Positions 4,462 to 45,157 of a stretch of 64,000 bases of DNA are shown piece after piece. The stretch comes from Verrucosispora sp. NA02020 (lineage in GTDB: Bacteria > Actinomycetota > Actinomycetes > Mycobacteriales > Micromonosporaceae): positions 4,712,001 to 4,776,000 of the forward strand of contig NZ_CP054923.1 in the NCBI RefSeq assembly GCF_013364215.1. The letters run 5' to 3'. The translations under genes were made by a program, and so were the position numbers. The first letter of the stretch is position 1, and every line of letters begins with the position of its first letter. The notes beneath the pieces are model-generated. The model was not told where the DNA came from. It searched no databases and saw only the letters and a list, made by a program, of their open reading frames with translations.

Positions 4462-6992
<2,531 letters not shown>

Positions 6993-7003
6993 GGTCCACC
7001 ACC

Positions 7004-30955: not shown

Positions 30956-31291
30956 ATGAACGATCTCTTCACCTGGGCGGCGCTGGGCAGTCTGACCGGC
31001 GCGAGCGCCGCGACGCTGCTGGCCACGAACGTCATCGGCGGGCTGATCGGCCCGAGTGCCGACACGGCACGCAAATGGATCGCGCTGGGTATCGCCCTGC
31101 TGCTGTCGTACCTCACCGCGGCCTTCGCCACCGACGCGGGCGCCGAGAAGTGGATCATCGCCTTCTTCAACGGCCTGGTCATCTTCTCCGCCGCCCTCGG
31201 CGTCAACCAACTGCCTCCCGGCAACCGGCAGGCGACTCCGACCCGGCTGGCGCAGGGCAACGAGCCCCGCTTCATCCGCTCCTGGGCCTAG
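30956..31291 (+). CDS. Small membrane protein beside the contractile system
   Basis: A 111-residue protein with three predicted membrane segments (about 7-30, 43-60 and 64-85) and a basic C-terminal tail (RLAQGNEPRFIRSWA). The ATG at 30956 follows GGGAGATCGGCG. Size and topology are holin-like, but no holin family signature is visible. It is 12 bases before the HExxH protein and oriented with the tail genes, so it may belong to the same transcript. Confidence 0.6.
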   Translation: MNDLFTWAALGSLTGASAATLLATNVIGGLIGPSADTARKWIALGIALLLSYLTAAFATDAGAEKWIIAFFNGLVIFSAALGVNQLPPGNRQATPTRLAQGNEPRFIRSWA

Positions 31292-31303
31292 AGGGGAACC
31301 GTC

Positions 31304-31915
31304 ATGGCCGTCTTCGGAGTCATCAGCGCCGCCGTCCACGTCGCGGCGGGCACGGTCCTCGGCGGGCTGCTGGGCGGACCCGTCGGGCTGCACGTCGGGG
31401 CGGGCGTCGGTCTGGTCGTCGGCATCGTCTTCGGATGGTCGATCACCTCGGCCCGGGTCTACGGGGCCGACGCCCGAGGGATCTTCCTGTTCGTCGTCGA
31501 CCACACGTGGAGCCTGCTGAACACGGTGGTGGGCGCGACCTACCTCGCGGTGCACCTGGTCTTCGGCCACTCGCTGGACCGGGCCACCTCGCAGCACAGC
31601 TGCCGGGTCAACGTGGTGGAGGGCGTCTCGCCGCGCTACGCCACCACGCTGGGCACGGTCTGCGCCGGCTCCGGGCCGGGCATCCAGCGCCACGAGGACG
31701 TGCACATCTTCCAGGCCCGACTGCTCGGACCGCTCTACATCCCGCTGGTCCTGGCCAACTACGTGCTGTTCACCATCGCGCCGGTGTGGCTGCTCTACCA
31801 CGACCACACCGGCGCCCCGATCAACCGCTTCACCCGGTACTTCGAGATCGGCGTCTACCCGCACGTGTGGAACGAGGCGATCGCGTACCGCATCCAGGGG
31901 ACGCCGCCGCGATGA
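31304..31915 (+). CDS. Membrane protein with HExxH motif beside the contractile system
   Basis: A 203-residue protein with Gly-rich membrane segments at about 5-45 and further hydrophobic stretches at 60-88 and 143-165. HEDVH at residues 130-134 sits in GIQRHEDVHIFQARLLGPLY and matches the zinc-metallopeptidase HExxH pattern; E181 or E191 could be the third ligand. A membrane metallopeptidase is therefore possible but not proven. Its stop overlaps the start of the Pvc16-like gene (ATGA), which ties it directly to the injection system. Confidence 0.6.
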   Translation: MAVFGVISAAVHVAAGTVLGGLLGGPVGLHVGAGVGLVVGIVFGWSITSARVYGADARGIFLFVVDHTWSLLNTVVGATYLAVHLVFGHSLDRATSQHSCRVNVVEGVSPRYATTLGTVCAGSGPGIQRHEDVHIFQARLLGPLYIPLVLANYVLFTIAPVWLLYHDHTGAPINRFTRYFEIGVYPHVWNEAIAYRIQGTPPR

Positions 31916-32601
31916 CCGGAGGCGGCCCGATAGAGACGGCCACCGCCGAGCTGGCGGAGTGGCTGGCCGGGGCGGCGGGAGACGCCGTCCCGGTCGGTCC
32001 GCCCGGGTCCGGTCCGGCGGCGGGCGGGCTGACACTGTGGCCGCTGGAGTTGCGCCCGGCCCGGCAGACCCGGGGCAGCGGCGGCCCCGAGCCGTACCGG
32101 CTCGTCGCCCGCTACCTGCTCGCCGCAGACGGGCCGGAGGCGCTGGCGACGTTGGACCGGGTGCTCGTCGCGGCGACCGGAGGAAGCGGACACACGCTCG
32201 TGCTGGAGGCCGGTGACCCGGCGCTGTGGGTGGCCCTCGGCGTCCCGCCCCGGCCGGCCCTGCTGATCGACGTACCGGTGCAGGTCACCCACCCGCACGA
32301 GCCGGCACCGCCGGTGCTGCGTCCGCTGCGGCTGCGGCAACTGGAGATGCTCACCTTCGACGGCCGCGTCGTCGGTCCCGCCGACCAGCCGCTCGCCGCG
32401 ATGCGGGTGGAGGTCGTCGGTCAGCCGTACGCGACCCAGACCGATCCGGCGGGACGGTTCCGGGTCGTCGGCGTGCCGCACGACCCGCAGCAGCCCGGAA
32501 CGGTACGGCTCCGGCTCACCGGTCGGGGTCAGGTGCTCACTGCCGAGGTGGACCCGACCGACACCGACATCGTCATCGTCTGCGCGCCACCGACCCGCTG
32601 A
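31912..32601 (+). CDS. Pvc16/Afp16-like tail-end protein with carboxypeptidase-regulatory domain
   Basis: A 229-residue protein. Residues 1-140 resemble the N-terminal domain of Pvc16-type (DUF4255) proteins that cap the end of the tube (ATAELAEWLAG, then YRLVARYLLAADGPEALATL and LLIDVPVQV). The C-terminus (about 150-229) is a carboxypeptidase-regulatory-like beta sandwich (DGRVVGPADQPLAAMRVEVV, TDPAGRFRVVGVP). Its place directly before the sheath gene and its coupling to the preceding gene fit a structural role. Assignment rests on weak similarity plus context. Confidence 0.6.
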   Translation: MTGGGPIETATAELAEWLAGAAGDAVPVGPPGSGPAAGGLTLWPLELRPARQTRGSGGPEPYRLVARYLLAADGPEALATLDRVLVAATGGSGHTLVLEAGDPALWVALGVPPRPALLIDVPVQVTHPHEPAPPVLRPLRLRQLEMLTFDGRVVGPADQPLAAMRVEVVGQPYATQTDPAGRFRVVGVPHDPQQPGTVRLRLTGRGQVLTAEVDPTDTDIVIVCAPPTR

Positions 32602-32623
32602 CCCGACCCGTACGGGAGGACCG

Positions 32624-33886
32624 ATGCCCAGCTACTTCTCACCCGGGATCTATGTCGAGGAGGTGCCTGCCGGTGCCCGGCCGATCGGACCGGTCGGCAC
32701 CAGCACGGCAGCCTTCGTCGGCGTGGCTCCGGACCGCACGGCCCGTCTCGGCGAGGCCCTCGCCGTGAACAACTGGACCGAGTTCCTCCGCCTCTACGCC
32801 GACGGTGACGAGTTCGAGAGCACCCCGTTGGCCCGCGCGGTCTTCGGTTTCCTCGACAACGGGGGCACCCGCTGCTGGGTGGTCAACGTCGGCGAGGGCG
32901 GCGCGCTCACCGGCAGCGGACGCCAGCGCGGCGGACTGGACCTGCTGGAGGCTATCGACGAGATCTCCATCGTGGCCGCGCCCGGCTTCCACGACGCGGT
33001 CGCGCACGAGGCGCTGCTGAGCCTGGCCGAGCGCACCCGCACGATGGTCGCCATCTGCGATCCCGCTCCCGACATCGACGACATCTCGACCTTGACCCGG
33101 GTGGCCACGGCCGGCTCCGGTCGGGCGGCGAAGCCCACCGAGGGCGGCGACAGCCCCGCCAGCTCGGGTGGCTCCGGCGGCGCGGGCGGGGGTACGACCG
33201 GGTCGAGCGGCGGCCCGCAGGCGCACCGGCCCCGGCAGTCCGACTTCGGCGCGCTGTACTTCCCCTGGCTCCGGGTCCGCGACCCGCTCAGCGGCGACCT
33301 GGTGCTCACCCCGCCGAGCGGGCACCTGGCCGGCATCTGGGCCCGCACGGATGCCCTGCGCGGCGTGCACAAGGCTCCCGCCAACGAGCCGGTACGCGGT
33401 GCCGTCGACCTGGGTCATCTGGTCACCCGATCCGAGCACGACGTGCTCAACCCCAAGGGCGTCAACGTGATCCGGTACTTCCCCGGCGAGGGCATCCGCG
33501 TCTGGGGCGCGCGGACACTCGCCGCCGAGGCCAGCGAGTGGCGGTACCTCAACGTCCGGCGGCTCTCCATCGCCATCGAGCAGGCCATCGCCAACGGCAC
33601 CCGGTGGATGGTGTTCGAGCCGAACGACTACACGCTGTGGCGCTCCATCCGCCGGGACATCGGCGCCTTCCTGACCCGGGTGTGGCGCGACGGCGCGCTG
33701 CTGGGGCGTACGCCCGAGGAGGCGTTCTTCGTCAAGTGTGACGAGGAGACCAACCCGGCCGACGTCCGGGACGCCGGGATGGTGGTCGCGCACATCGGCA
33801 TCGCGGTGGTCAAGCCCGCCGAGTTCGTGGTGTTCAAGCTGAGCCAGTGGGCCGGCGGCACCGAGACCGAGACGATTGGAGGCTGA
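32624..33886 (+). CDS. Contractile tail sheath protein
   Basis: A 420-residue sheath protein of the phage-tail/Pvc2-4 family. The N-terminus SYFSPGIYVEEVPAGARPIG is the hallmark start; the C-terminal domain has YLNVRRLSIAIEQAIANGTR, MVFEPNDYTLWRSIRRDIGAFL and VVKPAEFVVFKLSQ, all typical of sheaths. A Gly/Ser-rich loop (about residues 164-205) is inserted in the middle. Only one sheath gene is present, whereas Afp/PVC have three. Contraction drives the inner tube through a target membrane. It is followed 1 base later by the tube gene. Confidence 0.95.
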   Translation: MPSYFSPGIYVEEVPAGARPIGPVGTSTAAFVGVAPDRTARLGEALAVNNWTEFLRLYADGDEFESTPLARAVFGFLDNGGTRCWVVNVGEGGALTGSGRQRGGLDLLEAIDEISIVAAPGFHDAVAHEALLSLAERTRTMVAICDPAPDIDDISTLTRVATAGSGRAAKPTEGGDSPASSGGSGGAGGGTTGSSGGPQAHRPRQSDFGALYFPWLRVRDPLSGDLVLTPPSGHLAGIWARTDALRGVHKAPANEPVRGAVDLGHLVTRSEHDVLNPKGVNVIRYFPGEGIRVWGARTLAAEASEWRYLNVRRLSIAIEQAIANGTRWMVFEPNDYTLWRSIRRDIGAFLTRVWRDGALLGRTPEEAFFVKCDEETNPADVRDAGMVVAHIGIAVVKPAEFVVFKLSQWAGGTETETIGG

Positions 33887-33887
33887 C

Positions 33888-34367
33888 ATGCCGACCACGG
33901 CCACTCCGCAGCCGGGCGCCCCGGTCGACCCGTACCGGGCGTACAACTTCAAGCTGCTGGTCAACGGGGTCACCAACGGCCACTTCACCGAGGTCAGCGG
34001 CCTGGACGTGAACATCCCCGCCCAGCCGTACCGGGAGCAGGGCAACGACCGGATCCGGATGATCCCCGGACAGGTCGAGTACGGCCCGGTCACGCTGCAC
34101 TTCGGCCTGACCGCGTCCCGGGAGCTGTGGGACTGGGTGCACACGATCGCCCGGGGCACCAGCGACCGCCGCAACGTCTCGGTGGTGCTGCTCGACTCCG
34201 TCGGCACGGCCGAGGTGCTGCGCTGGAACCTGCTCAACGCCTGGCCCACCCGATGGCGCGGCGCACACCTCAACACGCTCGGCCAGGAGATCGCCATCGC
34301 GGCGCTGACGCTGCGCTACGAGAGCCTGGAACTGGAGACCGGCGGTGCCGCGCCCACGCCCGCGTAG
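33888..34367 (+). CDS. Contractile tail inner tube protein (gp19-like)
   Basis: A 159-residue tube protein. NFKLLVNGVTNGHFTEVSGL, the QGNDRIRMIPGQVEYGPVTL stretch and ELWDWVHTI followed by NVSVVLLD fit the T4 gp19-like tube family (Pvc1/Afp1). Stacked hexamers of this protein form the injected tube. ATG 33888 is chosen over the upstream frame because of the GGAGG at 33878. Only one tube gene is seen; Afp and PVC have two or three. Confidence 0.93.
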   Translation: MPTTATPQPGAPVDPYRAYNFKLLVNGVTNGHFTEVSGLDVNIPAQPYREQGNDRIRMIPGQVEYGPVTLHFGLTASRELWDWVHTIARGTSDRRNVSVVLLDSVGTAEVLRWNLLNAWPTRWRGAHLNTLGQEIAIAALTLRYESLELETGGAAPTPA

Positions 34368-36096
34368 CTGGGTCGCCGGTCGGCTCCGGTCCGCCGCGCG
34401 TGCCGTGGACCGGTTCGCCGGTCTGGTCGACACCACCGACGACGAGAGGGACGACGACCTGCGTGGTGGCATCCGCGCCAGCGCGACCGGGGGCCCGCGT
34501 GGCGACGCGGTCGGCGACGCGGACCACGGGACTGACGCCGCAGCGCCGTCGGACGTGTGGGAGGCGGTCGCGTACCGGCATCCGGACCGCCCCCCGGAGC
34601 ACTGGCTGCGGCTGATCGCCGCCCATGCCCCGGGGCTGCTCCGCGACCTCGCGGCCGAGCTGCCGCCTGGTGCTCTGCCGCCTGGTGATCTGCCGCCTGG
34701 TGCGGCGGAGGGACCGGTGGACGTGACCGATCCGTGGGCCGGGCGACGGCCGCCCGGCGGCGGCTGGGGCGACGGGGTCTCGTCGGCTCACGTCGCGTCA
34801 CCGGGGAGGGACAGGTCCTCCCCCGGCCCCTTTGCTCTGCTTCAACCGACGCGACGCCCGGGATACCGCACGACGGCCGTTGCGTGGAGTGAAGCAGAGC
34901 AAAGGGGCAGAGCAGGGACAGGTGCCGGCCCCACGACCAGCCCTACGTCCGGCCCCACGACCGGCGCGACGACCGGACCGGCGACCGGCGCGACGACCGG
35001 CGCGACGACGGGACCGGCGACCGGTCCGGCGGCGGTACGCGGGGGCAGCCCGACGTCGAGTGACCACGGCGTACCGGGAGGCGGACGTACGGGAAGCGGA
35101 GCCGATACAGGAGCCGGGATGGAGGGTGCGCCGCGGCCGTCCACGGGCGGCACGCCCTCGGTGAGTGGTGTGGGCACGGCGGAAGCAGCCCCAGGCGTCA
35201 GCGGGGCACGCGCACCGGGAGCAGCGGCGGGCGTCGGCGGACCCAACACACCGAAGATCAGCGGACCGAACACACCGAAGGCAGGTGAGGGCGTGAGCGG
35301 GGTGGCGTCCGGTGGGGAGGGTGTGGGTCCGGCGGTGGGCGACGCGACGATGCCGTGGGCGGGCGGACGCGGGCGTCGCGCGGATCCGCCCCGCGAGGGG
35401 ACGGACCCGGCGACCGGCGTGACCGGCACCGGTGTGGCGGACGTGTCGGGCCGACCACGGCGGGGCTCGGGTGCCGACCGACAGACCGACGTTCCGGTGG
35501 CGTCCGCCGGATCGTCGTCCGGCTCCGGGTCGACGGCGGGGCACTCACGGTCGGTGACGGATCCGCCCGAAGCACCGCGATCGGTGCCGGGCCGGAATCG
35601 GGCGGTGCTACGCCTGGTCAGCTCCGACCCGGACATCTCGCCGTCACAGGTATCGGGGCGGGAGTCCGACGGGGAGCGGCGTCCGGCGCGATCACCCGGC
35701 AGCGGACGCGACGGGGATCGGCATCCGGCGTGGTCGGGTGGGGACGGGCCCGACGGGACGCGGTACCCGGAGCGGTGGGGAGCGGCGGGTGGGGACGGTC
35801 CGTCCGGGAGGGGCGGCGAGGTCGGGTGGCGGCGCGCGGACGGTGCGTACGGGGACGGGCTGTGGCCCGGTGCGGGGCTGCCGGCCGGCACCGGTCAGCG
35901 GCCGGCACCGGCGCGCGGGCCCTGGCCGGAACTGGGCCCGGACGGGACCACCGACGTCCGGACGGGTGGCGGGCGGGACGCGTCCGACCCGTGGCCCGCC
36001 CTGCCCGACGACCGGGCACTCTGGGCGGTCCCCGAGCCGGAGGACGCCGCCGCGGCCCACCTGCGCCGACTCGACCGGGAACAGGCGGGCGGCTGA
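34345..36096 (+). CDS. Long disordered protein in the Afp6/Pvc6 position
   Basis: A 583-residue protein that begins inside the end of the tube gene (GTG 34345). A short ordered segment near residues 67-105 (SDVWEAVAYRHPDRPPEHWL, AAHAPGLLRDLAAELPPG) may be the conserved part. The remainder is Gly/Ser/Thr/Pro/Arg-rich with repeats of ATTG/ATGP and no predicted fold. In Afp/PVC clusters a small protein sits between tube and Afp7; here that slot is filled by a much longer chain. A palindromic repeat element is translated in frame (about residues 161-188). It could be a tape-measure substitute or scaffolding protein, but nothing proves that. Confidence 0.6.
   Translation: MPRPRPRSWVAGRLRSAARAVDRFAGLVDTTDDERDDDLRGGIRASATGGPRGDAVGDADHGTDAAAPSDVWEAVAYRHPDRPPEHWLRLIAAHAPGLLRDLAAELPPGALPPGDLPPGAAEGPVDVTDPWAGRRPPGGGWGDGVSSAHVASPGRDRSSPGPFALLQPTRRPGYRTTAVAWSEAEQRGRAGTGAGPTTSPTSGPTTGATTGPATGATTGATTGPATGPAAVRGGSPTSSDHGVPGGGRTGSGADTGAGMEGAPRPSTGGTPSVSGVGTAEAAPGVSGARAPGAAAGVGGPNTPKISGPNTPKAGEGVSGVASGGEGVGPAVGDATMPWAGGRGRRADPPREGTDPATGVTGTGVADVSGRPRRGSGADRQTDVPVASAGSSSGSGSTAGHSRSVTDPPEAPRSVPGRNRAVLRLVSSDPDISPSQVSGRESDGERRPARSPGSGRDGDRHPAWSGGDGPDGTRYPERWGAAGGDGPSGRGGEVGWRRADGAYGDGLWPGAGLPAGTGQRPAPARGPWPELGPDGTTDVRTGGGRDASDPWPALPDDRALWAVPEPEDAAAAHLRRLDREQAGG
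34826..34908. repeat. Palindromic element inside a coding sequence
   Basis: Arms 34826-34844 and 34890-34908 are perfect 19-base inverted copies (core TTTGCTCTGCTTCA) around a 45-base loop. The element lies wholly within the disordered protein gene and is read through in frame. Its sequence, less GC-rich and unlike the adjacent coding repeats, suggests insertion of an intergenic-type repeat into the gene. Confidence 0.65.
34930..35030 (+). repeat. In-frame tandem repeat (ACC/GGC-rich) coding Thr-Gly-Ala/Pro units
   Basis: Repeats around GCGACGACCGG encode GATTGPATG-type units of the disordered protein. All copies are in frame, so length changes would not disrupt the gene. Confidence 0.6.
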
Positions 36097-36839
36097 TGGA
36101 ACGGGTCGCGTTCCTCGTCGACGCCACCGGCGAGCGGGTGGACTGTCTGCTCAACCCGGAGACCGTGCAAGTCAGTCGGCTGGCCGGAGTACGCCGACGG
36201 GGCAGCACCGGCAGTCAGCTCACCGGCGCCGGGCTCGCCGACGACCCGCTGGTCTTCACCGGTGGTGGGCGTACCGAACTCGTTCTCGACCTGCTCTTCG
36301 ACACCGACTTCGCGGAGGGGCAGGTCCGACCGACTGACGTGCGTGCGCTGACCCGTCCGCTCTGGATGCTGGCGGAGAACTCCGCGGTCGAGCACGGCTG
36401 GGTCCGGCCGCCGCTGGTGCGGCTGGTCTGGGGCAAGACCTGGAACGTGCCGGGGGTGATCGTGGCGGTGGCGGAACGGTTCGACGCGTTCACCGCCACG
36501 GGGTCGCCGCGCCGGTCCTGGCTGCGACTCAAGCTGGTGCGGGTCGCCGAGGACACCACCCGGGCCGAGGAGGGTTTCGCCGAGGAACTGGCCGAGGCAC
36601 AGACGCCGGCCGTCGCGCCGGGCACGGCCCTGGTCGCCGCCGGGGACGGCACCGCCACGGCCGATTCCACCGGCGTACGTTTCGACCTGCTCGCCCACGA
36701 CGCGCTCGGCTCGCCGCTGCGCTGGCGGCTGCTGGCCGAACACAACCGGATCACCGACCCGCTCGCCGTGCCCGCCGGCACCGCGCTGGCCGTACCGCCG
36801 CTGCCGGGCACCGTCGCCGCGACGGGTGACGGGACATGA
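36096..36839 (+). CDS. Tube-baseplate adaptor with LysM-like end (Afp7/Pvc7 type)
   Basis: A 247-residue protein whose N-terminus (VAFLVDATGERVDCLLNPETV, TELVLDLLFDTDFAEG) matches CIS tube-like domains that join spike, baseplate and inner tube. The last 40 residues (LRWRLLAEHNRITDPLAVPA, GTALAVPPL) form a LysM-like motif. Its ATG overlaps the previous stop (TGATG) and its end overlaps the VgrG-like start, consistent with stoichiometric translation of baseplate parts. Confidence 0.85.
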   Translation: MERVAFLVDATGERVDCLLNPETVQVSRLAGVRRRGSTGSQLTGAGLADDPLVFTGGGRTELVLDLLFDTDFAEGQVRPTDVRALTRPLWMLAENSAVEHGWVRPPLVRLVWGKTWNVPGVIVAVAERFDAFTATGSPRRSWLRLKLVRVAEDTTRAEEGFAEELAEAQTPAVAPGTALVAAGDGTATADSTGVRFDLLAHDALGSPLRWRLLAEHNRITDPLAVPAGTALAVPPLPGTVAATGDGT

Positions 36840-38431
36840 GCGGCGGCGCGCCCCGGGCGCTGACGGTGCTGCTCGACGGCGGCCCGTTGGCCAGCCGGGG
36901 CACCGGACGGGTGCTCTCGGTGCGGGTGGCCGCCCGGCTGAACCGACCGACGCAGTGCGAGGTGGCGTTGACCACCGGGCCGGGCGACGCGCCGCCGGTC
37001 GCCACGGCGCGGGTCGGCGCGCGCCTGGAGGTCCGCCTCGACGGGTACCCGGCGGCGCTCTTCGGCGGCGAGGTCACCGCCGTCGAGGTCGAGTACGCCG
37101 CCGACGGCGCGGCGATCCTGCGGATCCGGGCGTACGACGCGCTGCACCGGTTGCGCAAGCGGCAGCGGTTGCGGGTGTTCGAGTCGGTGACCGCCGCCGA
37201 GCTGGCCGCCGACCTCTGCGCCGACCTGGGACTGCGGGTCGACGCCGAGGTCGACGGGCCACGGCTGGACCGGCTGCCGCACCACCGCCCGAGCGACCTC
37301 GACCTGCTGGTGGAGGTGACCGGCCGGGCCGGGCTGCACCTGAGTGTCGACGACGACGTGCTGCGTCTGCTGACGCTCGACGGGTACGGCGCGCCGATCC
37401 CGCTCGCGCTCGGCCGCGACGTGCACGGCCTGCGGCTGGCGGTCAACGCGGACGCCGCCGTGGGCGAGAGCGCCGCGCTCGGCTGGCACCCGCAGCGGGC
37501 CGAAGCGTTGACCTCGCAGGCCGCCGTGCCCCGGTGCGGGCGGGACACCCCGGTGGACCCGGATCCCGCCGACGTGGGCGCGGACGGCACCCGGACCGCG
37601 CTGGACCAGCCGGGCCGCAGCGACGACGAGATCGCCGCGCTGGCTCAGGCCCGGCTGGACGTACGCGCTGCGGCGCTGGTCACCGCCGAGGGCACCGCCG
37701 AGGGCGATCCCGCGTTGCGTCCCGGTCGGCGGATCCGGTTGACCGGGGTCGCCGAGTCGATGGCCGGCACGTACGTGCTGACCGAGGTGGTGCACACCGT
37801 CGACGCCGACGGGTACCTGAGTCGTTTCTCCACCGTGCCGCCTCCGGCGCCGCCGGCCGGGTCACCCGCTCCGGCGGTGGTCACCCTGGGCACCGTCACC
37901 GACGTGGCGGACCCGGACGGGCTGGGGCGGGTGCGGGTGGAACTGCCCGCGTACGGCGGGGCGGACGCGGGTTGGCTGGCGGTGCTCTGCCCGGGTGCCG
38001 GCCGGGGCAAGGGACTGGTGGCGCTGCCCGATCCGCAGGACACCGTGCTGGTGGCGCTGCCCGGTGGGGAACCCGCCTCGGGTGTGGTGCTCGGTGCGCT
38101 GTTCGGCGCCGTCACGCCGTACGACACCGGGGTGGACGACGGGCGGGCCCGGCGCTGGTCGCTGCGGACCTCGGGCGGGCAGCAGGTGGTGGTCGACGAC
38201 GTGGCCCGCAGCCTGCGGCTGAGCACCGACACGGGTAGCTGGCTGGAGCTGACCCCGGACCTGGTCACCCTGCACGCCGCCGCCGACCTGGTGCTCTCCG
38301 CCCCGGGCCGGGCGATGGTGGTGCGCGCCCGCAGCGTCGACTTCCTGCACGCCGAGGCGAGCGAGGACCCGGGCACCGCCGCCGAGCGGGCCCGCAGCCT
38401 GGCCCGCACCCATCACGGAGGAGGTGGCTGA
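36836..38431 (+). CDS. VgrG/gp27-gp5-like spike protein (Afp8/Pvc8 type)
   Basis: A 531-residue spike protein. Residues 1-340 are gp27-like beta barrels (ARLEVRLDGYPAALFGGEVT, IRAYDALHRLRKRQRLRVFE); residues about 345-425 form the gp5-like OB domain (LGTVTDVADPDGLGRVRVEL, then LPDPQDTVLVALPGGEP and GVVLGALFG); the rest is a beta-helix-like end. It forms the central piercing hub of the baseplate. No obvious effector domain follows the spike. ATG overlaps the previous gene by 4 bases. Confidence 0.92.
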   Translation: MSGGAPRALTVLLDGGPLASRGTGRVLSVRVAARLNRPTQCEVALTTGPGDAPPVATARVGARLEVRLDGYPAALFGGEVTAVEVEYAADGAAILRIRAYDALHRLRKRQRLRVFESVTAAELAADLCADLGLRVDAEVDGPRLDRLPHHRPSDLDLLVEVTGRAGLHLSVDDDVLRLLTLDGYGAPIPLALGRDVHGLRLAVNADAAVGESAALGWHPQRAEALTSQAAVPRCGRDTPVDPDPADVGADGTRTALDQPGRSDDEIAALAQARLDVRAAALVTAEGTAEGDPALRPGRRIRLTGVAESMAGTYVLTEVVHTVDADGYLSRFSTVPPPAPPAGSPAPAVVTLGTVTDVADPDGLGRVRVELPAYGGADAGWLAVLCPGAGRGKGLVALPDPQDTVLVALPGGEPASGVVLGALFGAVTPYDTGVDDGRARRWSLRTSGGQQVVVDDVARSLRLSTDTGSWLELTPDLVTLHAAADLVLSAPGRAMVVRARSVDFLHAEASEDPGTAAERARSLARTHHGGGG

Positions 38432-38769
38432 TGCGCTGGATCCATCGCGACTCGGTGATCAGGTGTGACCACGACGGCCGGATCCGCAACGAGGAGTCGC
38501 AGGGGTGGGTGCGGGTGGTCGGTGTACCGGTGCTGGTGGCCGACGACCCGAAGGGCCGGAAGATCGTCGCCTGCCCGAACTACGGCGCGACGGTCAAGCC
38601 GTGTACGAAGACCGAGCCGGTGCGCGTCGGTTACAGCGACTTCGTCCGCGTGGACGGTCACCGGGTGGTGCTGTCGCACCTGGAGGGCTTCACCGACGGC
38701 AGCCCGCCGGGCCAGTTCCGGTACCGGGTACGCGATCCCCGGCAGGCGTTCCTGGGGGCCGACCGGTGA
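38431..38769 (+). CDS. Small Cys/His protein between spike and gp25, candidate spike tip
   Basis: A 112-residue protein starting in the VgrG stop (TGATG). H5, C12, H14, C48 and C58 could bind a metal, and the chain is rich in short strands (WVRVVGVPVLVADDPKGRKI). PAAR tip proteins are small, strand-rich and metal-bound, and their genes lie beside vgrG and gp25 in contractile clusters. I do not see a full PAAR motif, so the tip role is inferred from size and position. Confidence 0.55.
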   Translation: MRWIHRDSVIRCDHDGRIRNEESQGWVRVVGVPVLVADDPKGRKIVACPNYGATVKPCTKTEPVRVGYSDFVRVDGHRVVLSHLEGFTDGSPPGQFRYRVRDPRQAFLGADR

Positions 38770-39224
38770 GGGCGATCCGGTTCCTCGGCGCGGGTTTCGA
38801 CGCCGGGCGCGGTGGGGGGCTCGGACTGACCGCGGCCGGCGGGCTGGCCATGACCGACGGCGACGAGACTGTACGCCAGGCGCTGTTCCTGCTGCTGTCC
38901 ACCACGCCGGGCGAGCGGCTGATGCGCCCCGGGTACGGCTCCCGGCTGCACCGGTTGGTCTTCGCCCCGAACGACGACACCACCGCCGGGCTGGCCATCC
39001 ACTACGTCCGCGCGGCGGTCACCCGCTGGGAGCCCCGCATCGACGTGCTCGACGTGGACGCCGGTCCGGACCCGGACGACCCGTGGCGGCTGGTGATCCG
39101 GCTGGACTACCGGATCCGGGCCAGCCTCACCCCCGGGCAACTGGTCTTCTCCGTGGACCTGCTGCCCACCGACGACGACCCGTCGGGGCCGACCCTCGAC
39201 CCCGACGCTGAGGAGGGGCGATGA
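38766..39224 (+). CDS. gp25-like baseplate wedge protein (Afp9/Pvc9 type)
   Basis: A 152-residue protein beginning at GTG 38766, overlapping the previous stop (GTGA). The gp25 pattern is clear: ETVRQALFLLLSTTPGERLM followed by RPGYGSRLHRLVFAPND and AIHYVRAAVTRWEPRI. gp25 proteins link baseplate wedge and sheath initiation. A Gly-rich lead of about 30 residues precedes the domain. Confidence 0.92.
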   Translation: MRAIRFLGAGFDAGRGGGLGLTAAGGLAMTDGDETVRQALFLLLSTTPGERLMRPGYGSRLHRLVFAPNDDTTAGLAIHYVRAAVTRWEPRIDVLDVDAGPDPDDPWRLVIRLDYRIRASLTPGQLVFSVDLLPTDDDPSGPTLDPDAEEGR

Positions 39225-41809
39225 CCCTGCCCGTGCCGCACCTGGACGACCGGACCTTCCTCGACCTGGTGACCGAGGCCCGGGAGCGGATCCGGCAGTC
39301 CTGCCCCGGCTGGACCGACCTGTCCGCGCACGATCCGGGCATCGCCCTGTTGGAGGCGTTCGCGCACCTCACCGAGGTGATGATCTATCGGCTGAACCAG
39401 TTGCCGGAGAAGGCGTACGTCTCCTTCCTCAACCTGCTCGGTGTGACCCGGCACGCCCCCTCGGCGGCCTGGGCGGAGGTGCGGTTCACCCGGACCGGCG
39501 CCGACGACGAGGCGCTGCGGATCCCGGCCGGTACCCGGGTCGCGGCGGCGCGTGGCGCGGACCCGCGACCGGTCGTCTTCGTCACCTGCGAGCCGGCGCT
39601 GCTCGCCGCCGGCCAGCGTGAGGTGACCGTCCGGATGCACCACTGCGAGCCGGTCGAGGCGGAACTGCTCGGCGTCGGCACCGGCGCGCCGGGGCAGGTG
39701 CTGCGGGCCGGGCGGGCCCCGCTGGCCCGGACCGCCGAACCGTTGGACCTGCTGCTCGGCGTCGAGGTGCCGACCGGCTCGGTGGAGTTGGGCGCGGCGG
39801 CCCGCGAGCACGAGGGGCGGACCTTCGAGATCTGGCGGGCGGTGGACAGTTTCGCCGGCCTCGGAGCGCAGGACAAGGCGTACCTGGTGGACCGCTGCTC
39901 GGGCACGGTGACCTTCGCCCCGGCGCTGGACCTGCGCGGGTCGGACTCCGCCGGTGACGACGCCCCGGTCGCGGCCGTACCGCCGGCCGGACGGCAGGTG
40001 CGGCTCTGGTACCGCGCCGGTGGCGGCACCGCCGGCAACGTGGCGGCCGGGACGTTGACCAGCCTGCGGGACCCGCTGCCCGGGGTGAAGGTGGTCAACC
40101 CGGCACCGGCGGCCGGCGGCCGGGAGATGGAGGCGATGGAGTCGGTGCTGCTGCGCGGCCCGTACGCCTTCTTCGCCCAGCAGCGCGCGGTGACCGCCCG
40201 CGACTTCGAGGTGCTGGCCACCGGTTCCGGCGGGGTGAGCCGGGCCCGCGCCTTCACCCGGGCCGCCGTCTACAGCTTCGCCCGACCCGGCGAGGTGGAG
40301 GTGGTGCTGGTGCCGTACGTGCCGGACGACGCCCGGCCCGGCGGCCGGCTGCCGGTGGAGGTGCTGCGCGGGCACGAGGTGGAGGAGGCGCGGCTGCGGG
40401 TCGAGGCGGACCTGGAACGTCGCCGGTCGCTCGGCACCACCTGCCGGGCGAGCTGGGCGCGGTACAAGGCGGTGTCGATCCGGGCCCGGGTGGTGGTGCG
40501 CCGGGAGGAGGACGCGGAGGCGGTCCGGCGGCGCATCCACGACCGGCTGCACCAGACGCTGAGTCCGCTGCCCACCCCGCTGAACCCGGCCGGTTGGGCG
40601 TTCGGTGAGCCGCTGCGCGCGTCCAACGTGTACCGGTTGCTGGAGCACGCCGAGCCCGGGGTGCGCTACGTCGAGTCGGTGCGGTTCGTCGTCGACGAGG
40701 CCCCCGACCAGCAGGTCCGCACGCTCGCCGCGGACCAGTACCAACCCCGCACCTGGTACGCGGGCAGCGGCCCGGTGCTGTTCCGTTCCACCAACGCCGG
40801 TGCCGGATGGGAGCCGGCGGGCCGGTTCGACGGGGAGACCGTGCAGCGGGTGGCGCCCGCACCCGCCCCGGTGCGGCCCGGCATCGTGCCCCGGCCCGGG
40901 TCGGTGGCGGTGGCCGCGGTCCGGTCCGGCGGCGGCTCCCGGGTGCACCTGAGCGCCGACCTGGGCGAGACCTGGTCGCTGCTGGCCGACCTGGACTCGC
41001 GGATCAGTGACCTGGCCTGGATCGACCGGGACGGCGCGGGCGCGTTGCTGGTCGCCACCGACACCGGCCTGTACGAGGTGTCGCTGCTACCCGGTGCGGT
41101 GCCGTTGCAGATCCTGGTCGACCCGGCCGACGCCGACCGGGGCTTCTACGCGGTGCGGGCGTTCGTCTCCGAGCGCGGCGTACCCGGGGTGGCGGTGGCC
41201 GCGCAGGCCGGATTCGGGGTCTACCTCTCCGGTAACGCGGGCCGACCCGGCAGCTTCTCCCACGTCGGGTTGGCCAACGTGGACAACCGGCTGCTCGCCG
41301 TGCAGTACGACGGCCCGGCCACGCTGCTGTGGAGCGGTGCCGGCGAGCCGGACCCGAAGCGGCCCGGGCAGGGGTGCTTCCGGGCCCGGCTGTTCGAGTC
41401 CGACGTGAAGTGGCAGGCGATGCAGTCCGGCTGGATCGGCGGCACCTGCCGGGACCTGACCTTCAGCGGCACCCAGGCGCTGGCCGCCACGCAGAGCGGC
41501 GGGGTGTTGCGGCTGGACACGGTCGCGGCACAGCCGCAGTGGTCGTCGGTGTCGGTCAACTGCGGGCTGCCGCTGCGCGACCGCACCCGGTTCGTGCCGG
41601 TGGACGCGATCGCCGCCACCGCCGGGACGGACCGGCTGGTGCTGGCCGGTGGGGAACGCGGCGTGCACCGCAGCGGCGACGCGGTCGACTGGTCGGCCAG
41701 CGCCAACCAGGCCACCGCCGACGTGGTCACCGTCCCGGACACCTGGCTGCTCTGCTCCGGCGAGCACGACATCGAGGTGGTGCGGCAGGATGCGTCGACC
41801 GGCCATTGA
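39221..41809 (+). CDS. Baseplate J-like wedge protein fused to a predicted beta-propeller (Afp11/Pvc11 type)
   Basis: An 862-residue protein. The N-terminal half is a gp6/J-type baseplate protein: LSAHDPGIALLEAFAHLTEV, then YRLNQLPEKAYVSFLNLLGV and VTARDFEVLATGSGGVSRAR. From about residue 505 the chain changes to repeated strands with Asp-box-like turns (RSTNAGAGWEPAG near 522, HLSADLGETWSLLADL near 575, GVHRSGDAVDW near 813), suggesting a sialidase/BNR-type beta-propeller. Such an extension could bind glycans or surface proteins. ATG overlaps the gp25 stop by 4 bases. Confidence 0.85.
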   Translation: MTLPVPHLDDRTFLDLVTEARERIRQSCPGWTDLSAHDPGIALLEAFAHLTEVMIYRLNQLPEKAYVSFLNLLGVTRHAPSAAWAEVRFTRTGADDEALRIPAGTRVAAARGADPRPVVFVTCEPALLAAGQREVTVRMHHCEPVEAELLGVGTGAPGQVLRAGRAPLARTAEPLDLLLGVEVPTGSVELGAAAREHEGRTFEIWRAVDSFAGLGAQDKAYLVDRCSGTVTFAPALDLRGSDSAGDDAPVAAVPPAGRQVRLWYRAGGGTAGNVAAGTLTSLRDPLPGVKVVNPAPAAGGREMEAMESVLLRGPYAFFAQQRAVTARDFEVLATGSGGVSRARAFTRAAVYSFARPGEVEVVLVPYVPDDARPGGRLPVEVLRGHEVEEARLRVEADLERRRSLGTTCRASWARYKAVSIRARVVVRREEDAEAVRRRIHDRLHQTLSPLPTPLNPAGWAFGEPLRASNVYRLLEHAEPGVRYVESVRFVVDEAPDQQVRTLAADQYQPRTWYAGSGPVLFRSTNAGAGWEPAGRFDGETVQRVAPAPAPVRPGIVPRPGSVAVAAVRSGGGSRVHLSADLGETWSLLADLDSRISDLAWIDRDGAGALLVATDTGLYEVSLLPGAVPLQILVDPADADRGFYAVRAFVSERGVPGVAVAAQAGFGVYLSGNAGRPGSFSHVGLANVDNRLLAVQYDGPATLLWSGAGEPDPKRPGQGCFRARLFESDVKWQAMQSGWIGGTCRDLTFSGTQALAATQSGGVLRLDTVAAQPQWSSVSVNCGLPLRDRTRFVPVDAIAATAGTDRLVLAGGERGVHRSGDAVDWSASANQATADVVTVPDTWLLCSGEHDIEVVRQDASTGH

Positions 41810-42380
41810 GCGGCTGCTGCCCGCCGCCTACCAGCGCGCCTGCGTGCCGGGCAGCGTGCTGTGGGCGCTGCTGGACGTGATGGAGGCGCTGCACGCGCCG
41901 GACGAGGCGGTGCTGGCCGACGTCGACGGGCTGTTCGCGCCGTACCGGGCACCGGGCGGGATGGTGGCGTACCTGGCCGGGTGGGTGGCGATGGACCACG
42001 TGGTCGCCGCGCCCCGGCGGGACGCGCCGCTGCCGTTGCCGCTGAGCCGGCTGCGTGACCTGGTCGCGCACGGGGCGGCGCTGGCGACCTGGCGGGGCAC
42101 CCCGGACGGGCTGCGGACCGCCCTGGAACTGGCCACCGGGGTCACCGGTTTCGTCCTCGACGAGCCGGCCGACCGGCCGTTCCACCTGGTCGTCCGGGTG
42201 CCGCCGACCGCCGCCGACCAGCTCGACCTGGTCAGCCGGATCGTCGCGGCGGAGAAGCCGGCCGCCGTGACCGCCGAGATCACCGTCGTGGCGGGCGCAC
42301 CGGCGGTCGGCCGGGCCAGTGTGCCGTCGCCCTCCCCCGTTCCCACCCCGCCCGATCCCGCTCCGGAGGAGCCGTCATGA
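41790..42380 (+). CDS. Tail protein I-like baseplate wedge (Afp12/Pvc12 type)
   Basis: A 196-residue protein from ATG 41790, 20 bases inside the previous gene. [40 protein letters not shown], and the [20 protein letters not shown] block match phage tail protein I and the second half of the gp6/gp53 wedge pair. It partners with the J-like protein. A Pro/Ser-rich tail ([15 protein letters not shown]) closes the chain. Confidence 0.85.
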
Positions 42381-43294
42381 CCACCGAATGGACCGTCGTC
42401 GCCGCAGCCGAGCAGTTCACCCTGGACGTCCGGAACGCCGGGGAGCTGACCTTCACCGTCTCCAACCCGGGGCTCGCGCCGGACACGGTGGTGTTCGACG
42501 TGGCGCCCGGCGAGGGTACGCAGCGTTCCTGGTTCACCGTCACCGAACCGCAGCGGGTGGTGCCCGGGCAGGGCTCGGTGTCGTTCCTGGTCCGGCTGGC
42601 CGTGCCGGCGGGGACGCCGCCGCGTCGCTACGACATGACCGGCTTCGCGTACTCGGCGAACACCGCGCCGGAGGAGAGTTCCCGCTCCAGTGGCCGGGTC
42701 ACATACGAGGTGCGGGCCGTGGCGCCGCCGAAGCGTACGCCCTGGCCGTGGATCGCCGCCGCGGCGGCGCTGGTGCTGGTGGTCTCGGCGGTGGTGGTGT
42801 TCCTGGTGGCGCGCGAGGACGATCCGCCGCCGCAGGCCCGGGTGGTGACCGTCGAGGCGGAGACGTTGGTGACCGGTGCCCGGGTCGAGTCGCCGACCGG
42901 CTCGGCGGCGGCCGTGGCGGTGCAGCCGAACTGTTGCGAGGTGACCTGGTCGCAGGAGAACCAGCTGTTCTTCCTGGGCCGGGCGATCAACGACCGGGTG
43001 ACCGTGACGGTGGAGGTGCCGGCCCAGGCCGTCTGGCAGTTCTCCACCGTGCGGACCACGGCTCCCGACTACGCCAACACGGTGTTCCTGATCGACGGGC
43101 GGCAGGTCGGTGATCCCTTCATCGGCTTCTCCCCCACGGTGCGGGTCACCGACTGGATCGACGTGGCCCGGGTGCCGCTGGCGGCGGGCCCGCACCAGAT
43201 CACCCTGGTGGCGATCGGCAAGACGCAGAGCACCGACCGCTACTTCGCCGGGGTGGACGCGATCCGCTTCACCGAACTCCCCCCAACCCCCTGA
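42377..43294 (+). CDS. Membrane-anchored Ig-like / carbohydrate-binding-like protein at the end of the tail operon
   Basis: A 305-residue protein translated from an ATGA overlap with the wedge gene. Residues 1-115 form an Ig-like sandwich ([20 protein letters not shown]), a single membrane helix follows at about 122-146 ([20 protein letters not shown]), and residues 160-305 resemble a CBM6/discoidin-like sandwich ([40 protein letters not shown]). Tight coupling makes it part of the contractile system. It could anchor the particle to the membrane from inside or carry a receptor-binding domain outside; topology decides and is not known. Confidence 0.65.
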
Positions 43295-43317
43295 CCCCCC
43301 CGACCCCCCTGAACCTG

Positions 43318-43377
43318 GTTGATCAAGAGGTTTGCGTCGGCTCAGCACCTCTTCCCGACGCAAACCTCTTGATCAAC
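43318..43377. repeat. 23-base-pair inverted repeat, terminator and likely repeated element
   Basis: Arms 43318-43340 and 43355-43377 are perfect inverted copies around a 14-base loop. The arms start GTTGATCAAGAGG, with much lower GC than the genes. The position 23 bases after the end of the tail operon fits a terminator. The length and composition suggest a repeated genomic element. Confidence 0.7.
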
Positions 43378-43411
43378 GCGACGAGACGACGTGCGACGAG
43401 AGCGAGGTGCA

Positions 43412-43867
43412 GTGGTGAGTGGGCGGCAGAAGGTGTTGTTGGGGGCGCTCGGGGTGCTGCTGGTGGTGTTGTTCGTGGTGGCGGTGGGAGTGGGCAGCGG
43501 GGGGCGGGGGGATCCGTCGGCGCGCAGTGGGTTGGTCGACCTGCTGGGGCGGGCCGGCGGGACGTCGGCGGTGGACCCGGCCACCGTCGACGCGGACTGT
43601 GCCGAGGCGCCCGGGGTGCTGGCCGTCACCGGCGACTGTGCGCTGCGGGTGGCCGACCCGGGTGGGTTGCGCACGCTGATCCTGCGCAGCCCGGAGGCGT
43701 TCACCGTCGAGGCGCCGGCCCCGGGGGACGCCGAGTTCACCGTCGAGGACGACGTCACGCCGGCCGACGACGGCACCGGCGCGGTGGCCCGGATCGCCGT
43801 GGACCGGGCCACCACGGTACGGGTGAGCTGCTCCGGCGGCTGTCCGGTCACGATCGCGCGGGACTGA
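43412..43867 (+). CDS. Small exported or membrane-anchored protein
   Basis: A 151-residue protein; GTG 43412 or 43415 follows GCGAGGTG. An N-terminal membrane helix (VLLGALGVLLVVLFVVAVGV) is followed by an acidic extracellular-like domain with four cysteines (VDADCAEAP, GDCALRVAD, RVSCSGGCPVTI), likely paired as disulfides. No family recognised. It is followed by a polytopic membrane protein after 14 bases and comes right after the contractile locus. Confidence 0.6.
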   Translation: MVSGRQKVLLGALGVLLVVLFVVAVGVGSGGRGDPSARSGLVDLLGRAGGTSAVDPATVDADCAEAPGVLAVTGDCALRVADPGGLRTLILRSPEAFTVEAPAPGDAEFTVEDDVTPADDGTGAVARIAVDRATTVRVSCSGGCPVTIARD

Positions 43868-43881
43868 GGCGGGAGGCCGGG

Positions 43882-44652
43882 ATGGGCGCGCTGCGCAAGC
43901 CGTTCCTGCTGTTGGCGATGCTGGCGCTGGTGCTGGCGGTGGGCGTCGAGCTGGGTGCCGGGCTGCTGCTGGGCGGCGGCGACGCCGGTGCGGCGCTGAC
44001 CGACAGCGCCGGTGACCTCGGGGTCGAGGTCGGTGACGTGAGCGGGGTCGGCGAGCCGTCCGGCCGGGGCACCGGCTATCTGGTGCTCGTCGACGCGGCG
44101 GCGCTCTGGACCACCGGGCTGTTCTGTCTGGGGTTGGTGCTGCCCGAACGGATCCACGGTCGGGTGCAGGGCGTCGCCACCCTGATCTTCTCGATCGTCC
44201 TGGTCATCGTGGCGTTCGTGGCGCTGATCGTCGCCTTCGTCGAGCTGATGGTCATGGTGTCGTTGTTCCTGGCTCCGCCGTTCGGCACGCTGGCGTACCT
44301 GGCGTTGTGGGGATTCTTCCCGGTCGGCGACGCGGCCGTGCTGCTCGGCCTGGTGCTGCTGCTCAAGCTCGCCTGGGCCGGTCTGCTGGTGCTGGCCCAG
44401 CCGAAGTTCCTCCAGAACAAGGGCCTGGTGCTGCTGATCCTGACCAGCCTGCTCTGCACGGTGCTGCTGGAGTTCCTGCACAATCTGGTGCCGGTGATCC
44501 TGGTGAGCATCCTGGACGATCTGGGCGCGCTGCTCTTCGCGATCATCGGGATCGTCTGGGCGCTGGTGCTGCTGATCGGCGCGATCCCGGCGATCGTGAA
44601 GGCGCTGCGGGCCACCGCCGCCCTGCGCGCCGAGCCCGATCCCGACCGCTAG
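43882..44652 (+). CDS. Polytopic membrane protein of unknown function
   Basis: A 256-residue hydrophobic protein with about six membrane helices (among them FLLLAMLALVLAVGVELGAG and FSIVLVIVAFVALIVAFVEL). ATG 43882 follows GGGAGGCCGG. No transporter or enzyme signature is seen. It is probably co-transcribed with the small cysteine-containing protein before it. Whether it works with the contractile system is unknown. Confidence 0.65.
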   Translation: MGALRKPFLLLAMLALVLAVGVELGAGLLLGGGDAGAALTDSAGDLGVEVGDVSGVGEPSGRGTGYLVLVDAAALWTTGLFCLGLVLPERIHGRVQGVATLIFSIVLVIVAFVALIVAFVELMVMVSLFLAPPFGTLAYLALWGFFPVGDAAVLLGLVLLLKLAWAGLLVLAQPKFLQNKGLVLLILTSLLCTVLLEFLHNLVPVILVSILDDLGALLFAIIGIVWALVLLIGAIPAIVKALRATAALRAEPDPDR

Positions 44653-44723: not shown

Positions 44724-45005
44724 GTGATCGGGCTCGGCATGATCTGGTACCTCGTCGGCGTACTCGCCGACGTGGGTGCTTCCAGCATGCTGTCCGGCAC
44801 GGCCGCGGCGACCGGTGTGCTGCTCGCCGCCGTGCTCGCCGCCGCGAACCTGGTCCATCGGGTGGTCACCGTCCCCGACCTGCGGATCACCCGACGGTTG
44901 CTCCGGGAACGGGCCGGGCGCACGGGCGTGCCCCGGCACCGCGATCCGGACGCCGCCGGCCGGGCCCGCCCCCGGGCATCGACCGCGACCCTCGCGGTCG
45001 CCTGA
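44724..45005 (+). CDS. DUF6412-like small membrane protein preceding YidC
   Basis: A 93-residue protein with two membrane helices (about 4-22 and 26-46) and an Arg-rich tail (LRERAGRTGVPRHRDPDAAG). Small proteins of this kind (DUF6412, as I recall the family) lie just upstream of extra YidC genes in actinomycetes. The GTG/ATG at 44724 follows GGTGGTGCC. A role in helping membrane insertion is possible but untested. Confidence 0.6.
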   Translation: MIGLGMIWYLVGVLADVGASSMLSGTAAATGVLLAAVLAAANLVHRVVTVPDLRITRRLLRERAGRTGVPRHRDPDAAGRARPRASTATLAVA

Positions 45006-45103: not shown

Positions 45104-45157
45104 ATGTCCGATTCATCCGTTTCCCGTTCACCGTACGCTGCCGGAGCCCTCCGGTGA
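45104..45157 (+). CDS. Possible 17-residue leader peptide coupled to the YidC gene
   Basis: ATG 45104 is preceded by GAGGGG at 7 bases. The frame reads MSDSSVSRSPYAAGALR and its stop overlaps the GTG start of the insertase gene (GTGA at 45154-45157). The insertase has only a weak ribosome site of its own, so translation could depend on this short frame. It may instead be chance. Confidence 0.35.
   Translation: MSDSSVSRSPYAAGALR

What the first reader, a model, noticed from the sequence alone, without database searches (positions are those of the whole stretch)
30956..43294. Reduced, membrane-linked contractile injection system without tape measure or AAA+ ATPase
Sheath, tube, tube/LysM adaptor, VgrG-like spike, gp25-like, J-like and tail-protein-I-like genes are all in one direction with 4-base overlaps, as in an eCIS. 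However there is one sheath and one tube only, and no AAA+ ATPase (Afp15), tape measure (Afp14) or fibre (Afp13) gene in the window. In their place are membrane proteins at both ends: a small multi-pass protein, an HExxH protein coupled to the Pvc16-like gene and a single-pass protein coupled to the wedge gene. There is no capsid, terminase or integrase (not a prophage) and no TssJLM (not a classical T6SS). This could be a tail machine that works anchored at the producer membrane.
Basis: partly seen in the sequence, partly recalled or inferred. Interest (0 to 1): 0.85.

Follow-up and report, generated by a model that had tools for sequence, protein, structure and literature searches.

The report
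Stripped-down, membrane-linked bacterial injection machine
Many soil bacteria of the genus Micromonospora carry a small phage-tail-like injection machine that lacks the motor protein and the cargo proteins its relatives are thought to need, and that comes with its own likely membrane anchor, so it may work simply by punching holes from inside the cell.

Summary
Window 31912-44652 encodes a contractile injection system (CIS): cap (Cis16 fold), one sheath, one tube, a low-complexity protein, Cis7/8/9/11/12 baseplate and spike proteins, a single-pass membrane protein (g14), and two more membrane proteins (g15, g16) beyond the given end. The block has no AAA+ ATPase, second tube, or recognised tape measure or fibre. 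The genome also holds a complete AAA+-bearing eCIS at 2.11-2.14 Mb, but parts are not borrowed: 97 of 160 Micromonospora genomes carry the window-type sheath, 78 of them no other sheath; 76 of the 78 have no Pvc15-type AAA+ hit (the other two look generic), 0 of 78 an eCIS_core cargo domain. 37 of 55 named loci hold the full block (15 others end at contig ends); none shows a changed order; the block recurs in five further genera. It is a distinct, selected lineage. The membrane idea is partly right: g14-g16 go with the tail genes (two distant loci lack g15/g16 matches); g2/g3 are local add-ons. g14 sits where Streptomyces has the firing adaptor CisA. Likely reading: a cytoplasmic CIS docked by g14 that fires through the producer membrane without AAA-loaded cargo. 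Missing tape measure and single sheath are not unusual. Function is untested.

The parts
30956..31291 (+). g2: 111-aa protein, two hydrophobic segments; Micromonospora add-on, not core
   Evidence: Hydropathy; 36 of the 37 full named loci, no match in L033/L097
31304..31915 (+). g3: 203-aa membrane protein with invariant HEDVH (HExxH) motif; strongly linked add-on, not core
   Evidence: Alignment A2; strong match in 95 of 97 window-type genomes, 9 of 63 others; solo homologues in other genera
31912..32601 (+). g4: tail cap (Cis16/Pvc16 fold) plus C-terminal transthyretin/carboxypeptidase-regulatory-like domain
32624..33886 (+). g5: contractile sheath (single)
   Evidence: PF04984, PF17482; best PDB match S. 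coelicolor CIS sheath 8bky/9gtp E 2.7e-107
33888..34367 (+). g6: inner tube (single gp19-like)
   Evidence: PF06841, TIGR02241; CIS5 97.8 bits against CIS1 39.7, both under cut-off
34345..36096 (+). g7: 583-aa G/A/P/R/S/T-rich protein with conserved ends, in the tape-measure position (start codon GTG 34345 is inferred)
   Evidence: No family hit in Pfam, PHROGs, NCBIfam for residues 10-583; end motifs and lengths in 51 sequences
36096..36839 (+). g8: Cis7-like tube initiator/hub (CIS_tube)
   Evidence: PF19266 E 4.5e-12
36836..38431 (+). g9: Cis8/VgrG-like spike
   Evidence: PF05954, PF04717; 9gtr_q E 6.9e-25 with profile A4
38431..38769 (+). g10: 112-aa protein in the PAAR slot, conserved Cys/His, probable spike tip
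   Evidence: Position and alignment A3; no family hit
38766..39224 (+). g11: gp25-like sheath initiator (Cis9)
   Evidence: PF04965 E 1.4e-24
39221..41809 (+). g12: Cis11 wedge (baseplate J) with an added C-terminal region (about 500-862) of BNR-propeller similarity
   Evidence: PF04865; TIGR02243 270 bits and F510_1955 hit under cut-off at 606-764; 9gtp_1K and BNR protein 3b7f E 4.6e-05
41790..42380 (+). g13: Cis12 wedge (tail protein I)
   Evidence: PF09684, TIGR02242 under cut-off
42377..43294 (+). g14: single-pass membrane protein: conserved N-terminal Ig-like domain, one membrane helix, more variable C-terminal CBM35/CBM6-like domain; presumed docking protein
43391..43867 (+). g15: single-pass membrane protein, the fastest evolving of 14 genes tested
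   Evidence: Hydropathy; dN/dS 0.57 and 0.47; conserved position
43882..44652 (+). g16: polytopic membrane protein (about six hydrophobic stretches)
   Evidence: Hydropathy; in 97 of 97 window-type genomes and 2 of 63 others

Best explanation
This is a stand-alone, conserved lineage of contractile injection system in Micromonosporaceae that lacks the AAA+ ATPase, the second tube protein, the DUF6760 and preceding 160-aa-type genes and the eCIS_core cargo of its relatives, and has a wedge-coupled membrane module (g14-g16). Mechanism: hub (g8, g9, g10) and wedges (g11, g12, g13) assemble in the cytoplasm, tube g6 and sheath g5 polymerise up to cap g4, the low-complexity g7 lies in or at the lumen, and the baseplate docks on the inner face of the membrane through the N-domain of g14, possibly on the g12 propeller; g14's outer carbohydrate-binding-like domain touches wall or surface glycans. 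On a signal the sheath contracts and drives the spike through the producer's own membrane (and wall), puncturing it without AAA-loaded cargo. Shown: genes, families, cap fold (by model), absences, conservation, stand-alone occurrence. Inferred: assembly, topology, docking, direction, trigger, puncture.
For: Gene content and folds. Genus census: 97 of 160 genomes have the window-type sheath; 78 no other sheath; 76 of 78 no Pvc15-type AAA+ hit at 1e-20, the other two weak 33-34% hits of the kind every one of 12 genomes gave in a control search. eCIS_core: 0 of 78, against 27 of 28 genomes with only other sheaths and 15 of 19 with both. 37 of 55 named loci hold all 12 core genes tested, none of 55 with changed order; same order in L173, L174, L175, L178, L182, L183 with other flanks, as far as each stretch reaches. 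DUF6760 and 160-aa-type genes: 0 of 69 window-type loci, 18 of 20 other class-level loci. Window-type sheaths form one clade, 100/99. dN/dS 0.10-0.57 for 14 genes in two pairs. g14 lies directly after the wedge genes, where CisA lies in S. coelicolor; CisA is a bitopic membrane protein needed for firing (PMC12237407, passages).
Against: g14 gave no BLASTP hit (E <= 1) to the CisA-like (by position) protein of this genome's own eCIS, so the parallel is positional and topological. In S. coelicolor the ATPase mutant makes normal-looking, contractile particles that do not cause cell death (PMC10020575, passages), so an ATPase-free CIS could be expected to be inactive. Another Micromonospora CIS type has eCIS_core but only generic AAA hits (G133, G153, G191; G235 by its matches alone), so ATPase and cargo are not strictly coupled. 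No particle has been seen, and g7, g15 or an unlinked protein could be cargo. ATPase absence outside Micromonospora was tested in one genome only: Hamadaea G061, which has a complete AAA+ eCIS elsewhere.
Confidence: 0.5

Rival explanations
1. The cluster is a satellite of the complete eCIS and borrows its ATPase, second tube and cargo in trans.
For: This genome holds a complete AAA+-bearing eCIS; 17 of 19 genomes with further sheath matches also have the ATPase; Hamadaea G061 also has both.
Against: 78 of 97 genomes with the window-type sheath have no other sheath match and 76 of them no ATPase hit, 0 of 78 eCIS_core.
Confidence: 0.04
2. A T6SS-like outward weapon: membrane-anchored at the producer and fired outward at neighbours, with cargo on the spike, propeller or g7; the polytopic g16 or HExxH g3 serves as channel, immunity or processing factor.
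For: Several conserved membrane genes with the tail genes; g14's C-domain resembles CBM35/CBM6 modules, fitting surface or wall glycan contact; g3 keeps an invariant HExxH motif.
Against: No TssJLM-type or ClpV-type match in the block; no family match that names an effector or immunity protein; a thick cell wall lies in the way (general knowledge).
Confidence: 0.25
3. g7 is the length ruler and/or cargo: a shortened counterpart of the long low-complexity ORF found in the equivalent slot of related clusters.
For: Equivalent slot to long low-complexity open frames, 714-1556 codons stop to stop in 19 of 21 loci, shorter in L145 and L149; conserved ends and variable middle, 415-658 aa stop to stop in 49 of 51 sequences; in the third CIS type the ORF in this slot carries eCIS_core, as the tapemeasure-related effector Tme of S. 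davawensis does (PMC11126660, passages).
Against: No sequence homology shown: 0 of 49 g7 C-termini above the decoy 99th percentile in a first test, 1 of 49 in a second, 14 of 49 above the 95th; no family match and no hydrophobic segment in g7.
Confidence: 0.35
4. A decaying remnant of an eCIS.
For: Fewer genes than the complete type; sheath in two frames in G258 and G259; L104 keeps only the first 119 codons of g9, L103 lacks g4-g6 and L102 has an incomplete set; g3 reduced in G145.
Against: Full gene set in 37 of 55 named loci with 15 of the other 18 cut by contig ends, dN/dS well below 1, presence in 97 of 160 genomes.
Confidence: 0.03

Closest known systems
Streptomyces coelicolor CIS_Sc (type IId eCIS) with CisA
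   Same: Closest solved sheath, spike and wedge protein and cap fold; no recognised tape measure or fibre; a bitopic membrane protein encoded right after the wedge genes.
   Different: CIS_Sc has two tube proteins (Cis1a, Cis1b) and an AAA+ gene. Here: one tube, no AAA+, no eCIS_core, cap with extra domain, wedge with propeller-like region, a folded g14 N-domain (model) against a largely disordered CisA N-terminus, and g15/g16.
Afp/PVC eCIS
   Same: Order of hub, VgrG, tip, gp25, J, I; Pvc16-type cap.
   Different: Lacks Pvc15 ATPase, extra sheaths and second tube; no fibre family matched in the block; has membrane genes.
Thylakoid-anchored CIS (tCIS) of cyanobacteria
   Same: A CIS anchored to an internal membrane of its producer; its cap and tube are among the matches.
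   Different: tCIS anchors by a baseplate extension (as told in PMC12237407); here the candidate is a separate membrane protein.
R-type pyocin
   Same: Sheath, tube and minimal cap, no AAA+ ATPase (PMC4122934); kills by puncture without cargo (recalled).
   Different: Pyocins have lysis genes and fibres; none matched in this block, which has membrane genes instead.

Membership tests
eCIS (Afp/PVC-like, type II/IId) | Contractile sheath, tube, Cis7-9, Cis11, Cis12 in syntenic order | tested here: met
eCIS (Afp/PVC-like, type II/IId) | Pvc16/Cis16 tail terminator | tested here: met
eCIS (Afp/PVC-like, type II/IId) | AAA+ ATPase, 'always' or 'invariably' present (PMC4122934; PMC10020575) | tested here: not met
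   No match in the block; 76 of 78 genomes with only this sheath have no hit at 1e-20
eCIS (Afp/PVC-like, type II/IId) | eCIS_core (DUF4157) cargo, a core domain in PMC8213781 | tested here: not met
   0 of 78 genomes with only this sheath
eCIS (Afp/PVC-like, type II/IId) | Two tube paralogues ('generally', PMC4122934) | tested here: not met
   One gp19-like gene in the block; the other two in this genome lie in the second eCIS
eCIS (Afp/PVC-like, type II/IId) | Release as free extracellular particles | not testable with these tools
   Needs microscopy
T6SS | TssJLM membrane complex | tested here: not met
   No Pfam or NCBIfam match among the block's proteins; a weak TssM hit (E 0.018) falls on the neighbouring YidC-like protein; the rest of the genome was not searched
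T6SS | Two-protein sheath TssBC and ClpV | tested here: not met
   Single-chain sheath PF04984; no AAA+ match in the block; ClpV not searched genome-wide
CisA family | Position after wedge genes; bitopic, N-terminus in | tested here: inconclusive
   Position met; one membrane helix in the model; orientation inferred; no BLASTP match to the own genome's CisA-like protein
Prophage / R-type pyocin | Capsid, terminase, integrase or lysis genes | tested here: inconclusive
   None matched among block members; the rest of the window was not scanned with PHROGs; g2 has a sub-threshold holin match (E 0.089)

The most novel reading that the evidence does not exclude
A cargo-free CIS: a membrane-docked, intracellular contractile machine that acts by puncture alone, like a pyocin turned inward, and that could do without the AAA+ ATPase because that protein's job in other CIS is to load eCIS_core-type effectors. 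Micromonosporaceae would then be a natural knockout that tells what the CIS ATPase is for.
Probability: 0.3. Interest if true: 0.78.

Novelty: new variant of a known kind. Interest (0 to 1): 0.62.

Why it matters
The AAA+ ATPase has been described as always, or invariably, part of eCIS loci (PMC4122934, PMC10020575), and its role is open. A lineage kept in 97 of 160 Micromonospora genomes without it, and in 78 of these without any eCIS_core cargo in the genome, separates the structural machine from its loader and cargo and makes both questions testable. It also offers a second membrane-adaptor candidate (g14), with no detected similarity to this genome's CisA-like protein, at the CisA position, which suggests that inward-acting, membrane-docked CIS arose or were re-tooled more than once in filamentous actinobacteria. 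Surveys may have missed it: eCIStem required at least ten core genes (PMC8213781, passages); whether it is in that database could not be checked.

Tried and rejected
Borrowed parts: rejected by the genus census. Remnant: disfavoured by dN/dS and synteny. g7 as a sequence homologue of the complete type's low-complexity protein: an HMM of nine C-termini chosen with a motif filter put 0 of 49 g7 ends above the decoy 99th percentile; a second HMM of 19 C-termini chosen without the filter (one of them, L141, probably a wrong frame) put 14 of 49 above the 95th and 1 of 49 above the 99th, so only position and composition link them. L054 and L087 were left out of both decoy tests because the extracted frame looks wrong; the lengths printed include them (370-658, median 518). 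Defence-system origin: no PADLOC hit for 10 proteins. bldA control: no TTA codon in g2-g16. g4 against the own Pvc16 by hhalign was weak (P 0.0025, probability 11.7) and was settled by the model. g14 N-domain against the own eCIS's Ig-like membrane protein: P 0.0003 but probability only 40, suggestive. Literature: searches; with 'Micromonospora' plus 'contractile injection' only PMC13277306 was listed, which concerns Sle1-type effectors (abstract and sections 3 and 10 read); no paper on an ATPase-less Micromonospora CIS was found by these searches, which hold open-licence papers only. PMC12210884 and PMC12998442 were seen as abstract and outline only, PMC12923769 as passages. The g7 translation used began at 34372 (GTC); the likely start is GTG 34345. 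Labels: 'CisA-like' for the protein after the own eCIS's tail protein I is by position and hydrophobic segment (Pfam finds an F5/8 type C domain); the 160-aa gene before DUF6760 has no Pfam family and its likeness to tail-assembly chaperones is recalled.

Full report
What is there. The window lies at 4,712,001-4,776,000 of contig 1 of its genome; its nearest named relatives are Micromonospora and Verrucosispora. Genes g4 (31912) to g16 (44652) run in one direction with short or no gaps. Pfam, PHROGs and NCBIfam between them name the sheath, tube, Cis7-like hub, VgrG-like spike, gp25, baseplate J and tail protein I. By sequence the nearest solved sheath, spike and wedge are those of the Streptomyces coelicolor cytoplasmic CIS (8bky/9gtp, 9gtr, 9gtp); the tube is about equally near to several CIS tubes. 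The sheath is 44-45% identical to that of the genome's own second eCIS, the tube 25-31%.

The gene in the tape-measure slot. g7 is a 583-aa Gly/Ala/Pro/Arg-rich ORF with no family. In 51 extracted sequences the open frame is 370-658 aa (median 518; 415-658 without two that look misframed), with short conserved motifs at both ends. In the own genome's second eCIS and related loci a longer low-complexity open frame lies in the equivalent slot, before or after the second tube gene: 714-1556 codons stop to stop in 19 of 21 loci, 548 and 310 in L145 and L149. Sequence tests do not show that g7 is its homologue. In a third CIS type of Micromonospora (L157, L158, L166) the frame in that slot carries eCIS_core, as does the S. 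davawensis tapemeasure-related effector Tme (PMC11126660, passages). S. coelicolor particles have one length although no tape-measure gene was recognised in that cluster (PMC12237407 section 6). So 'no tape measure' is shared with a known CIS, and g7 is the candidate ruler or cargo, unproven.

Is it stand-alone? The same genome has a complete eCIS at 2.11-2.14 Mb: sheath, two tubes, CIS_tube/LysM hub, OB-fold spike, PAAR, gp25, J and tail protein I, DUF6760, eCIS_core protein, AAA+ ATPase, Pvc16_N cap and membrane proteins. But in the genus, 97 of 160 genomes have the window-type sheath and 28 of 160 only other sheaths. Of the 97, 78 have no further sheath match (three of these show the one sheath as two pieces, in G258 and G259 in two frames). 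Of the 78, 76 have no hit to the complete type's ATPase at E <= 1e-20; the two hits (G128, G265) are 33-34% identical over about 260-270 residues and look like the generic AAA matches that all 12 genomes of a control search give at 1e-5 (best such 2.3e-20, in G239). 17 of the 19 with further sheath matches have the ATPase. The eCIS_core cargo domain is in 0 of 78, in 15 of 19 and in 27 of 28 genomes with only other sheaths. The machine therefore cannot depend on a complete eCIS in those 78 genomes.

Is it kept? A scan of named genomes with the spike profile gave 55 loci: Micromonospora, Verrucosispora, one unnamed Micromonosporaceae isolate and two Hamadaea. 37 of 55 hold g4-g6 and g8-g16 all; of the other 18, 15 are cut by a contig end, L103 lacks g4-g6 despite 9.6 kb of room, L104 has only a fragment of g9, and L102 has an incomplete set; no locus had a changed order. 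The same block was read in L173, L174, L175, L178 and, for Hamadaea, L182 and L183, with other flanking genes; the fetched stretch of L174 ends in the sheath and those of L173 and L175 inside g4. L176 and L177 lack matches to g15 and g16, and L176 also to g8 and g13. These five further genera (handles G009, G019, G042, G112, G115) came from a family search with g14 (137 of 354 genomes at E <= 1e-10, many through the carbohydrate-binding domain alone), from which I fetched 11 places, and one more for the Hamadaea ATPase; L179, L180 and L181 hold g14-like genes without a CIS. dN/dS is 0.10-0.57 for 14 genes in two species pairs. Window-type sheaths form one clade among 29 rows, support 100/99; two long branches (L145, L149) join it, which may be an artefact. 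In a class-wide search with the spike profile 47 of 394 genomes matched, only the two Micromonospora ones at full strength; I fetched 20 of the other 45: 18 could be annotated, and all 18 carry the DUF6760 gene, 17 of them also the 160-aa-type gene before it, which 0 of 69 window-type loci have.

What is core. g16 occurs in 97 of 97 window-type genomes and 2 of 63 others (one interrupted, one a fragment); g3, counting strong matches, in 95 of 97 and 9 of 63. g3 also stands alone in other genera, and neither g2 nor g3 lies before g4 in L182 and L183. So the core is g4-g16, with g2 and g3 a Micromonospora addition (g3 also in Hamadaea tsunoensis, L033/L097).

Mechanism. Assembly of hub, wedges, tube, sheath and cap follows from the families. 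Docking by g14, inward firing and cargo-free puncture are inferences from CisA and from the joint absence of ATPase and eCIS_core. The Photorhabdus ATPase Pvc15 is reported to associate effectors with the particle (PMC11495950, abstract in a search listing), and in S. coelicolor the ATPase mutant forms normal-looking contractile particles without cell-death activity (PMC10020575, passages); a machine without such cargo might not need it. Against: the third CIS type has eCIS_core and only generic AAA hits (G133, G153, G191; G235 judged by its sheath and eCIS_core matches), so the two can part. An outward, T6SS-like use remains open.

Novelty. The ATPase has been named as an invariable mark of eCIS (PMC4122934, PMC10020575, passages), and a review calls it a critical feature (PMC8910223, passages). 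I found no description of this lineage in the searches named under Tried and rejected. It fails the ATPase test and is best called a new variant of a known kind.

Noticed in passing
G000:C1:2114141-2140554 (L003, L004): A complete type IId-like eCIS with AAA+ ATPase, two tubes, eCIS_core protein, Pvc16_N cap, a CisA-like (by position) F5/8C-domain protein and an Ig-like membrane protein in the same genome.
   Followed up: partly
L157, L158, L166: A third CIS type in Micromonospora whose long ORF in the tape-measure slot carries eCIS_core (like S. davawensis Tme) and whose genomes (G133, G191, G153) gave only generic AAA hits.
   Followed up: partly
own genome about 2121720-2124867; L135-L149, L152, L154: Complete-type clusters hold a long low-complexity open frame right before or after the second tube gene, mostly with a conserved C-terminal end; a possible overlooked ruler or cargo in CIS said to lack a tape measure.
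   Followed up: partly
window 45154-46095 (g18), 44724-45005 (g17): A YidC/Oxa1-type insertase (TIGR03592, 179.9 bits) beside a small membrane protein next to the CIS; g17 is in 9 of 37 full loci.
   Followed up: no
L179, L180, L181: g14-like proteins encoded away from any CIS.
   Followed up: no
L034-L042: Solo homologues of the HExxH membrane protein g3 in other genera, without CIS genes nearby.
   Followed up: partly
L163, L164; G145; L165; L102, L103, L104: Damaged or reduced copies: sheath in two frames (G258, G259), g3 reduced to its last 25 codons in G145 or missing (G250, L165), partial clusters in L102, L103 and L104; some may be sequencing or assembly errors.
   Followed up: no
window about 1895-9429: Genes that look like a ketosynthase pair and acyl-CoA carboxylase subunits, i.e. 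part of a polyketide cluster (judged by eye from the starts of translations, no search made).
   Followed up: no
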